This document shows, in pieces, positions 14,878 to 17,278 of a stretch of 64,000 nucleotides of DNA. The stretch is from Yersinia ruckeri ATCC 29473 (GTDB taxonomy: Bacteria; Pseudomonadota; Gammaproteobacteria; Enterobacterales; Enterobacteriaceae), in assembly GCF_000754815.1 (NCBI RefSeq), contig NZ_KN150747.1, forward strand, positions 157,647-221,646, read 5' to 3'. The notes beneath the pieces are model-generated. The model ran no database searches and was not told the origin of the DNA. It saw only the letters and a program-made list of their open reading frames with translations. Position 1 is the stretch's first letter. The number at the start of each line of letters is the position of its first letter. The position numbers and the translations under genes are program-made.

Positions 14878-17278
14878 ATGATGATTAGACAAATAACCTG
14901 GTTTACAGCATTGGCTCTGGGGCTAACAACACTGTCTCATGCCGAAACTACCCCAATCGGTACGGCGGTCGAACCGTTGGTATTGGCCTCTCCTGCGGCA
15001 GTCGACCCTTCGCTGGTAGCAACCGCGGTGAATCCTGTGACGTCGCAAGTCGCACCCGTGCGGGATGTGGTATACCCGTTTGCCAAATTGGCTCCGCCGC
15101 CGGGAAATTTCTCCTTGTTGAGCGTCAAACCGGAAGGTCAACTGGAATTCGGTGTGCGCAGTGACGAGGTAGTCACTCAGGCAACCTTGAATCTGGAGTT
15201 CACGCCGTCACCGTCGCTGACGCCAATTGAATCGCAGCTCAAAATCTACTTGAACGATGAACTGATGAATGTCATGGCGATTACCCGCGAGCAATTGGGC
15301 AAATCGAATCGAATCCAGCTATCCATCGATCCGCGTTACATTACCGACTTCAACCGCCTACGGCTGGTGTTTATCGGGCATTATCAGGGTATCTGCGAAA
15401 ACCCGACACATCGATCCGCGTTACATTACCGACTTCAACCGCCTACGGCTGGTGTTTATCGGGCATTATCAGGGTATCTGCGAAAACCCGACAAACAGTG
15501 CGTTGTGGCTGAATATTGGCAAGGCTAGCTCGTTGGATCTGCGCTATCAGTCCTTGCCGCTGAAGAATGATTTATCTCATTTTCCTGAGCCATTCTTTGA
15601 TACACGTGATAGCCAAGCGCTGACGCTGCCCATTGTTTTTGCCGCTGCTCCAAACGTGGAGCAGCAAAAAGCCGCCGCGATTCTAGCCTCGTGGTTTGGC
15701 CAGCAAGCACAATGGCGTGGTCAGCATTTCCCGGTAACCTTCAATCAGATTCCTGACCGCCATGGGGTAGTTTTTGCGACCAACGACAAGCGACCTGATT
15801 TCCTGAAAGATTATCCGGCAGTCAATGCGCCAACGGTGGAGATGATCAGCCACCCGGATGATCCTTATGTGAAGTTACTGCTGGTTCTGGGGCGAGATGA
15901 TAAGGATTTGATTGTTGCGGCAACCGGTATTGCTCAGGGTAACATTCTGTTCCGTGGGCAAAATGTTACCGTAGACAAGGTTGAGCAATTGGCTCCTCGA
16001 GTCCCTTATGATGCGCCAAACTGGGTGCGTACCGAAAGGCCGATGACTTTTGCAGAGCTACAGCAATATCCTGAACAGCTACAGAGTAATGGGCAGTTGC
16101 CGCCACCTATTCTGCTTTCGATGAATTTGCCGCCAGACTTATTCTTGTTGCGCAGCGCTGGTATCGATATGCAGCTGAAATATCGTTATACCACACCTAT
16201 CTTAAAAGACGGTTCACGCCTGAGTGTCAGTCTGAATGACCAGTTCTTTACTGATTATCCACTGGTGCCGAGCCGTAATGAAAACGCTAAAATTTTGCGT
16301 TTACCACTGATTCAGGGACTGCAAGACGATACCCGAGTGGTCACTATACCGGCGTTGAAATTAGGCATGTCCAACCAACTACGCTTTGATTTCGATTACA
16401 GCACCTTGATTGCCAGCAGCTCGGAAGGGCGTTGCGAAACCTTCACCACCTCGCCAAACCATGTGGTGATCGACGGCAACTCGACTATCGACTTCTCCGG
16501 CTATCGTCACTTTATGGAAATGCCGGATTTGCGCTCCTTTGCCAATGCGGGCTTCCCATTTAGCCGTTTGGCTGATTTATCCCAAACCTTGGTCTTGGTT
16601 CAGCCTAAACCGCAGCCCGCTCAGGTCACGGCATTATTGAATACGGTGGGAAATATTGGTGCGCAGGTAGGTTACCCGGCGATAGGTATTAGCATTACAG
16701 ATGACTGGAGCAAGGCAAAAGATAAAGATGCCGATATTCTGATGATCGGCGCTATTCCGCCAGAACTACGGGATGATAAGAAAATCAACTTGCTGGTTGA
16801 TGCCACCCAAAGCTGGGTGAAAATGCCGAACCGCCAGCCAGCGATCGCGGCGGCAACATCTGATCCGACGGATTTAGTCCCTGATAGTAAAACTACCATC
16901 AGTTCCGATGGTGCCATGTCGGCGATTATTGGTGTTCAATCGCCTTATCACGACCAGCGCAGCATCGTCGCGTTGTTGGCCGACAGTCCACACGGTTACG
17001 ACTTGTTAAGCGACGCGTTACTGGATACCGGTAAACGTGCGGCGGTGTTTGGTTCCGTTGCCGTGATTCGTGATTCGGGCGTCAACAGCTTGCGGGTGGG
17101 CGATACTTATCAGGTGGGTCACCTACCTTGGTGGGAACGCATTTGGTTTGCCTTATCCACTCATCCCGTGATGCTGGCTGCGGTCGCGGTGTTGGTTGTC
17201 GTCTTGGCTGCCATGCTGTTGTGGCGCATTCTGCGGGCTGTCAGCCGCCGCCGTCTATCGCCGGAAGATAGGGATTAA
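14878..17278 (+). pseudogene. bcsB: bcsB, cellulose synthase periplasmic subunit, broken by 85-bp tandem duplication
   Basis: BcsB is the periplasmic, membrane-anchored partner that BcsA needs for activity. Frame 1 starts at 14878 with a signal peptide (ending ...TTLSHAETT) and runs into the conserved FNRLRLVFIGHYQGICENP region. It then leaves frame and stops at 15528 after 216 aa. The rest (NSALWLNIGK... through the C-terminal anchor helix) continues in another frame to 17278. The cause is visible: bases 15324-15408 are repeated exactly at 15409-15493. The unit of 85 bp is not a multiple of three. Removing one copy gives a 771-aa protein of normal length (E. coli 779). No other lesion is seen. 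Confidence 0.93.
15324..15493 (+). repeat. Exact 85-bp tandem direct repeat inside bcsB
   Basis: Two abutting identical copies, 15324-15408 and 15409-15493. The base before copy 1 (C) differs from the base before copy 2 (A), and the bases after each copy differ, so the unit is exactly 85 bp with no extra homology. It shifts the bcsB reading frame by +1. Confidence 0.97.

What the first reader, a model, noticed from the sequence alone, without database searches (positions are those of the whole stretch)
15324..15493. Cellulose synthase subunit gene bcsB switched off by an exact 85-bp tandem duplication
Seen directly: bases 15324-15408 repeat perfectly at 15409-15493, and this is the only lesion in an otherwise intact bcs operon. 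The unit is not a multiple of three, so BcsB is truncated at 216 aa; losing one copy restores a 771-aa protein. Perfect tandem repeats of this size can collapse by slippage or recombination, so the locus may be a reversible OFF state for cellulose rather than a dead gene. An assembly error or a laboratory-passaged variant must be excluded.
Basis: partly seen in the sequence, partly recalled or inferred. Interest (0 to 1): 0.75.

Follow-up and report, generated by a model that had tools for sequence, protein, structure and literature searches.

The report
Cellulose gene broken by tandem duplication
In this fish-associated bacterium a cellulose-making gene is cut short because 85 bases were copied twice in a row; it looks like an ordinary loss of function rather than a purpose-built on/off switch, and a genome-assembly error is not fully excluded.

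Summary
Bases 15324-15408 and 15409-15493 are identical, head to tail, and bcsB stops at 216 aa. The other eight bcs genes are intact. The genome is Yersinia ruckeri, almost certainly the draft of ATCC 29473: 3,771,509 bp in the paper plus 13 gaps of 100 N gives the held 3,772,809 bp. The unit was found once in 16 of 17 other Yersinia operons, unmatched in one, doubled in none. The breakpoints share no base exactly. Both flanking pieces of bcsB are conserved, which fits a young lesion. It is one of six different bcs lesions seen, in 5 of 18 Yersinia genomes with this operon; one, in Y. nurmii bcsC, is also a frame-breaking tandem duplication. Best reading: ordinary, recurrent cellulose loss, here by chance tandem duplication. 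Reversion is possible in principle, as for pneumococcal capsule genes, but nothing here shows a dedicated switch. No second Y. ruckeri chromosome could be examined, so an assembly error (about 0.2) and strain distribution stay open.

The parts
14878..15528 (+). bcsB, 5' part as it stands: 216-aa ORF; its first ~178 aa are BcsB, the remainder is out of frame
   Evidence: Pfam BcsB on residues 65-181; NCBIfam BcsB on residues 2-180; solved BcsB chain on residues 3-178
15324..15408 (+). 85-base unit, copy 1
15409..15493 (+). 85-base unit, copy 2, identical to copy 1
15526..15528 (+). premature stop codon of bcsB
15545..17278 (+). rest of bcsB, open in another frame (577 aa), conserved; a hydrophobic stretch near its C-terminus is taken by eye for the membrane anchor
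   Evidence: Pfam BcsB profile 134-606 of 606; dN/dS 0.054-0.056
7731..9371 (-). bcsG, intact
9374..9562 (-). bcsF, intact
9562..11211 (-). bcsE, intact (true start probably inside this ORF)
11314..11505 (+). bcsR, intact
11509..12246 (+). bcsQ, intact
12213..14870 (+). bcsA, cellulose synthase catalytic subunit with PilZ domain, intact
17284..18414 (+). bcsZ, periplasmic endoglucanase, intact
18384..21878 (+). bcsC, outer-membrane export protein, intact

Best explanation
A probably recent, spontaneous 85-bp tandem duplication without exact homology at its ends (for example a replication template switch or an end-joining event) disrupted bcsB in the sequenced Y. ruckeri strain. Shown, in the assembly: the duplication, the frame change, the stop after 216 aa, and otherwise intact bcs genes. 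Inferred: the short product lacks most of the periplasmic domain and the C-terminal membrane segment, so BcsA lacks its partner and the strain makes no cellulose, with possible polar effects on bcsZ and bcsC. Also inferred: the loss was tolerated or favoured in the fish host or in culture, as in other Yersinia strains whose bcs genes are broken in other ways. The allele may be unstable like any exact tandem repeat, but it is an accident and not an evolved switch.
For: Exact repeat and truncation. The unit is found once in 16 of 17 other Yersinia operons; in the 17th (L075/G007) the DNA match failed, but bcsB is open for 799 aa. No exact homology at the junction and no hairpin nearby. No second lesion in bcsB; dN/dS is 0.054-0.056 for the 3' piece and 0.134-0.136 for the 5' piece, against 0.052-0.147 for the other bcs genes. 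Six lesions of different kinds in 5 of 18 genomes with the operon: bcsB here; bcsC and bcsE in Y. nurmii; a stop in bcsQ in G018; stops in bcsA in G019 and G021. Controls: of 33 reference genes with a homologue in the window, bcsB alone is clearly broken. The genes at 1598-3208 and 24419-25711 (dppA and dctA, names recalled) are open in 25 of 25 Yersinia genomes, and prlC has an open frame of at least 684 aa in 25 of 25. BcsB is described as indispensable for BcsA activity in E. coli (PMC5727187, passages). Loss of bcs genes in another Yersinia lineage is in print (PMC5086877, passages).
Against: No reads and no second Y. ruckeri chromosome were available, so the duplication may not exist in the strain, or may be one of several alleles. 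dN/dS averages over the whole divergence and would not show a loss that is only moderately recent; dS is near or above 1 for several of the genes. No phenotype is known; ATCC 29473 was plated on Congo red in PMC12112432 (figure legend), but the passages that I saw do not state its result. The C-terminal domain of E. [quoted passage not shown]), so a weak restart product cannot be ruled out. The control genes are fewer bases than the bcs set and partly housekeeping; the count misses lesions near gene ends (Y. nurmii bcsE passed it as full length), so the excess of bcs lesions is suggestive only. The lesions in the other genomes also rest on one assembly each.
Confidence: 0.68

Rival explanations
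1. Assembly artefact: the extra copy was made when contigs of a short-read draft were joined, and the strain has a single-copy, working bcsB.
For: The source matches JPPT00000000, 2 scaffolds of 15 contigs from 100-bp Illumina and 454 reads merged with Newbler, Velvet, Allpaths and Phrap plus some manual editing (PMC4208323, whole text). The unit is shorter than one Illumina read. Zero exact homology at the junction is also what a false join of overlapping contig ends would give. The first 20 kb of the plasmid scaffold hold a 100-N gap and correspond to 20,235 bases in the best matching record, so the draft is incomplete in places.
Against: In 864 kb (23%) of the assembly the only other exact tandem duplications with units of 20-3000 bases had units of 32 and 41 bases (a run of a short unit in L061, listed, is set aside). 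No assembly gap within the 64-kb window. The two gaps seen share no word of 12 or more bases between their 400-base flanks. 454 reads would normally span 170 bases (general knowledge). bcs lesions recur in other genomes.
Confidence: 0.2
2. A true contingency locus: cells gain and lose the second copy often enough that populations mix cellulose-on and cellulose-off cells, as for capsule phase variation by intragenic duplication in pneumococcus.
For: Exact tandem unit, not a multiple of three, in a polysaccharide synthesis gene, with no other lesion found. Y. nurmii bcsC also carries a frame-breaking 8-base tandem duplication. Precedent: spontaneous, reversible duplications in pneumococcal capsule genes (PMC4243769 and PMC4022640, passages).
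Against: No second copy in relatives. No exact microhomology or hairpin at the ends. Four of the six bcs lesions in the genus are nonsense changes or a single-base deletion, not repeat-based. No second isolate available.
Confidence: 0.08
3. Laboratory domestication: the duplication arose and was kept during storage and passage of a culture-collection strain, and wild Y. ruckeri has intact bcsB. This is a sub-case of the best explanation, so the two odds overlap.
For: The source is very probably ATCC 29473. G019, whose contig has the same length as that of Y. frederiksenii ATCC 33641 (L028) and shares the 100 bases compared, has a stop in bcsA. bcsB has no further decay. E. coli K-12 is known to carry a bcsQ nonsense change (recalled, from no call).
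Against: Cannot be told from natural loss with one genome per species.
Confidence: 0.3

Closest known systems
Reversible intragenic tandem duplications in pneumococcal capsule genes (cap3A, cap8E/wchA, tts; Waite et al. 2001, 2003)
   Same: Tandem duplication inside an ORF of a surface-polysaccharide gene that abolishes its product; locus otherwise intact.
   Different: There, reversion is reported; here nothing is known about reversion or copy number in populations. Other organism and other polysaccharide. The Waite papers were seen only as cited in PMC4243769 and PMC4022640 (passages).
Cellulose-negative strains with one broken bcs gene (E. coli K-12 bcsQ, recalled)
   Same: One lesion in an otherwise intact E. 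coli-type bcs operon.
   Different: Nonsense change in bcsQ there, tandem duplication in bcsB here. Recalled, not tested.
Loss of bcsGFE and bcsQABZC in the Y. pseudotuberculosis/Y. pestis lineage (PMC5086877, passages)
   Same: Cellulose synthesis genes lost in a pathogenic Yersinia lineage.
   Different: Whole loci gone there; one gene disrupted here.

Membership tests
E. coli-like (type II) bcs operon, bcsRQABZC plus bcsEFG | All subunits present in the typical two divergent gene groups | tested here: met
   Pfam and NCBIfam hits for BcsR, Q, A, B (two pieces), Z, C, E, F and G at the listed coordinates; the typical layout is recalled
E. coli-like (type II) bcs operon, bcsRQABZC plus bcsEFG | Working cellulose (pEtN-cellulose) production | not testable with these tools
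   No phenotype; bcsB truncated
Frame-breaking intragenic tandem duplication (pneumococcal capsule type) | Exact head-to-tail copy inside an ORF, unit not a multiple of three | tested here: met
Frame-breaking intragenic tandem duplication (pneumococcal capsule type) | Reversion observed in cultures | not testable with these tools
   No reads or cultures
Repeat-based contingency (phase-variable) locus | Repeat present, and variable in copy number, in related species | tested here: not met
   Unit found once in 16 of 17 other Yersinia operons, unmatched in one, doubled in none
Repeat-based contingency (phase-variable) locus | Copy number varies between strains of the species or within a culture | not testable with these tools
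   No second Y. ruckeri chromosome and no reads held
Repeat-based contingency (phase-variable) locus | Sequence that predisposes to repeated gain (short homology at the ends, hairpin) | tested here: not met
   No exact shared base at the ends; the best shifted comparison gives 6 of 10. No perfect stem of 6 or more bp with a loop of 3-14 in the 60 bases around either end
Recent pseudogene | Single disabling change, remainder still showing the constraint of a working gene | tested here: met
   No stop in either piece; dN/dS 0.134-0.136 (5' piece, 148 codons) and 0.054-0.056 (3' piece, 577 codons) against the two closest relatives, within the 0.052-0.147 of the other bcs genes
Assembly artefact | Doubled unit absent from the reads | not testable with these tools
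   Reads not held; indirect checks

The most novel reading that the evidence does not exclude
In the Y. ruckeri - Y. nurmii group, cellulose synthesis is switched at random by intragenic tandem duplications (85 bases in bcsB, 8 bases in bcsC), so that the sequenced type strains were caught in the OFF state while populations hold both states.
Probability: 0.07. Interest if true: 0.55.

Novelty: new member of a known kind. Interest (0 to 1): 0.22.

Why it matters
If the duplication is real, the sequenced Y. ruckeri reference strain is a natural bcsB-null, which matters to anyone who reads its biofilm or dye-binding behaviour as typical. The wider pattern, with differing bcs lesions in the held genomes of 5 of 18 Yersinia species that carry the operon, suggests repeated selection against cellulose in hosts or in culture collections, which strain surveys can test. 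As a mechanism it adds nothing new unless copy-number mixtures are found.

Tried and rejected
Chance repeat: rejected. Systematic false joins of a fixed length in this assembly: looked for in 864 kb and not seen. Old, decaying pseudogene: not favoured, since both pieces are conserved and no second lesion was found. Predisposed hot spot: no exact microhomology or hairpin. Search for another Y. ruckeri copy of the site: the genome collections hold one genome per species, and no other Y. ruckeri chromosome appeared in the answers (one search says that the window's own record may be left out); an exact 34-base probe found nothing in the viral collection; E. coli genomes hold only distant bcsB (60-80% identity). 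Literature: the cellulose gene cluster of Y. ruckeri is mentioned in print, as a relative of that of Y. entomophaga (PMC4885058, passages); I noticed no paper on its function or on a broken bcsB in the listings (25 of 139 listed; 20 of 20; 2 of 2; 12 of 744 listed). 'bcs' did not occur in the main texts of PMC12112432, PMC8640586, PMC5320707, PMC10174560 or PMC6770984. Phase-variable kpsC in PMC13410964 (passages) rests on a run of A and is not a close parallel. Searches gave nothing that I used. No structure prediction was run: solved BcsB chains match both pieces by sequence and a fold would not bear on the question.

Full report
Observation. The exact repeat is there at the stated coordinates. 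It is exactly two copies: the run of identity is 85 at period 85, so the junction cannot be slid and the two breakpoints share no base exactly. Comparing the ten bases before copy 1 with the last ten of copy 2 at shifts of -3 to +3 gives at best 6 of 10, which I take as chance. bcsB starts at 14878 and ends at 15528 after 216 aa. The rest of the protein is open in another frame up to 17278. Pfam and NCBIfam recognise both pieces as BcsB, and the other subunits BcsR, Q, A, Z, C, E, F, G. Solved BcsB chains match both pieces.

Source. The window lies at 157,647-221,646 of a 3,672,847-bp scaffold, with a second scaffold of 99,962 bp. The closest named bcsB is that of Yersinia nurmii (91% aa). The first 20 kb of the small scaffold match Y. 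ruckeri plasmids at up to 100.0%. PMC4208323 (whole text) reports Y. ruckeri ATCC 29473 as 2 scaffolds of 15 contigs with 3,771,509 bp; thirteen gaps of 100 N add up to the held 3,772,809 bp, and the two gaps met in the 40 sampled stretches are 100 N long. I take the source to be that draft; the strain name is an inference.

Is it real? Reads were not available. Against a systematic artefact: in 864 kb of the same assembly (window plus 40 stretches, 23%) the only other exact tandem duplications with units of 20-3000 bases had units of 32 and 41 bases (one run of a short unit, L061, is set aside); the window has no gap; the 400-base flanks of the two gaps seen share no word of 12 bases or more. 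For an artefact: draft assembly, unit shorter than an Illumina read, no homology at the junction. I leave 0.2 for an artefact.

Relatives. Of 25 Yersinia genomes held including this one, 18 carry the same bcsB (76% aa identity or more). One of these (G008) has a second, distant BcsB as well, four others have only a distant BcsB of 28-30%, and three have no match. Among the 17 other operons the 85-base unit was found once in 16 and was not matched at DNA level in one (L075), whose bcsB frame is nevertheless open for 799 aa. The single copy is thus ancestral and the second copy is private to Y. ruckeri, to this strain or to this assembly.

Age. Against the two closest relatives (L066, L067), dN/dS is 0.134-0.136 for the 5' piece (148 codons) and 0.054-0.056 for the 3' piece (577 codons); the other bcs genes range from 0.052 to 0.147. 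Neither piece has a further stop or frameshift. This fits a gene that was under constraint until recently, but the ratio averages over the whole divergence, dS is near or above 1 for several genes, and a moderately old loss would not show.

Other bcs lesions. Y. nurmii (L022; G001 has a contig of the same length and gives the same matches) has an exact 8-base tandem duplication that breaks bcsC (period 8, run 13, at L022:10506; the closest relative L066 lacks it) and a one-base deletion in bcsE. G018 has a stop in bcsQ opposite residue 68. G019 (contig of the same length as Y. frederiksenii L028, and identical in the 100 bases compared) has a stop in bcsA opposite residue 95. G021 has a stop in bcsA opposite residue 710. 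Stops opposite bcsA residues 4-10 and bcsE residue 29 lie upstream of the probable start codons and are not counted. So six lesions were seen in 5 of 18 genomes that carry the operon, each resting on one assembly. Controls: of 55 reference ORFs from G009, 33 have a homologue in the window, and 29 of these are full length; of the other four, one is bcsB, one is an N-terminal extension of yhjK, one is a small ORF near the tRNA gene that I take to be spurious, and one runs off the window. Of 54 with a homologue in the Y. nurmii stretch 51 are full length, bcsC is split, and two short ORFs hold a stop; bcsE passed as full length there, so this count misses lesions near gene ends. dppA and dctA (names recalled) are open in 25 of 25 genomes, and prlC has an open frame of at least 684 aa in 25 of 25; the stops listed for prlC lie, I infer, in the upstream extension of my query. 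The excess in bcs is suggestive and not strong: fewer control bases, and partly housekeeping genes.

Mechanism. Shown in the assembly: duplication, frame change, stop. Inferred: loss of cellulose. BcsB is described as indispensable for BcsA activity in E. coli, and bcsB mutants there are defective in cellulose (PMC5727187, passages). The truncated product keeps the N-terminal region and about the first fifth of the Pfam BcsB profile. Two caveats: the C-terminal domain alone supports synthase activity in vitro (same passages), and TTG codons in the downstream frame lie near the stop, although a restart there would lack the signal peptide that I read by eye at the N-terminus. bcsZ starts 1,756 bases after the stop, so polar effects on bcsZ and bcsC are possible.

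Switch or accident? Reversible intragenic duplications are reported for pneumococcal capsule genes; I saw this in passages of PMC4243769 and PMC4022640 that cite Waite et al.. The present allele shares the form. It lacks the signs of an evolved contingency locus that could be tested: no second copy in other species and no predisposing end sequences. Whether it is lost at a measurable rate, and whether it varies between strains, is unknown. The Y. ruckeri cellulose cluster is mentioned in PMC4885058 (passages); the listings showed no paper on its function, but two of these list only part of their hits. PMC12112432 states that PNAG is the principal biofilm polysaccharide of the genus (passages), which would make loss of cellulose easier to tolerate. 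Loss of both bcs gene groups in the Y. pseudotuberculosis/Y. pestis lineage is in print (PMC5086877, passages). Pseudogene load in Y. ruckeri is reported as 5.7% of coding sequences on average by PMC8640586 (passages) and as relatively low by PMC2847712 (passages).

Verdict. A correctly observed, probably real loss-of-function allele, one of several independent bcs lesions in the genus. Ordinary in kind; mildly interesting for the recurrence and for the second tandem duplication in Y. nurmii. Intact single-copy orthologues exist; no repaired form was made or is given here.

Noticed in passing
L022:10506-10526 (Y. nurmii bcsC): Frame-breaking exact 8-base tandem duplication in bcsC, absent from the closest relative L066; the same genome has a one-base deletion in bcsE.
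   Followed up: partly
L079 (bcsA; probably Y. frederiksenii, L028), L078 (bcsA), L073 (bcsQ): Premature stop codons in bcs genes of three further Yersinia genomes, opposite bcsA residues 95 and 710 and bcsQ residue 68.
   Followed up: partly
window 22101-24101 (yhjK, name recalled) and its homologues: Matched full length (about 666 aa) in 10 of 25 Yersinia genomes; in the best matches of the other 15 the alignment stops at residues 238-263 and resumes at 391-416 within a shorter open frame of 528-585 aa, as if the middle (GGDEF, recalled) domain had been lost.
   Followed up: no
L055:15543 and L056:2488 (G000:C1 about 1,715,543 and 1,902,488): Two other exact tandem repeats, units of 32 and 41 bases, possible variable-number markers.
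   Followed up: no
G000:C2 (L046), gap at 3857-3956: The plasmid scaffold of 99,962 bp is shorter than the matching 103.9-kb Y. ruckeri plasmids; its first 20 kb, with a 100-N gap, correspond to 20,235 bases in the best record.
   Followed up: no
window 37629-40157: 842-aa inverse autotransporter adhesin, best NCBIfam match the YrIlm N-terminal model, below its cut-off.
   Followed up: no
window 36426-37323: Two overlapping ORFs; the first has no NCBIfam match, the second matches only C-terminal parts of LuxR-type response regulators, below cut-off; perhaps a divergent or broken regulator.
   Followed up: no
window 29159-29265, - strand: Match to the Yersinia small RNA Ysr224 (RF02770, 105.5 bits).
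   Followed up: no
G005, G008, G011, G015, G024: Distant BcsB homologues (28-30% identity), perhaps of a second kind of operon; in four of the five it is the only BcsB found.
   Followed up: no
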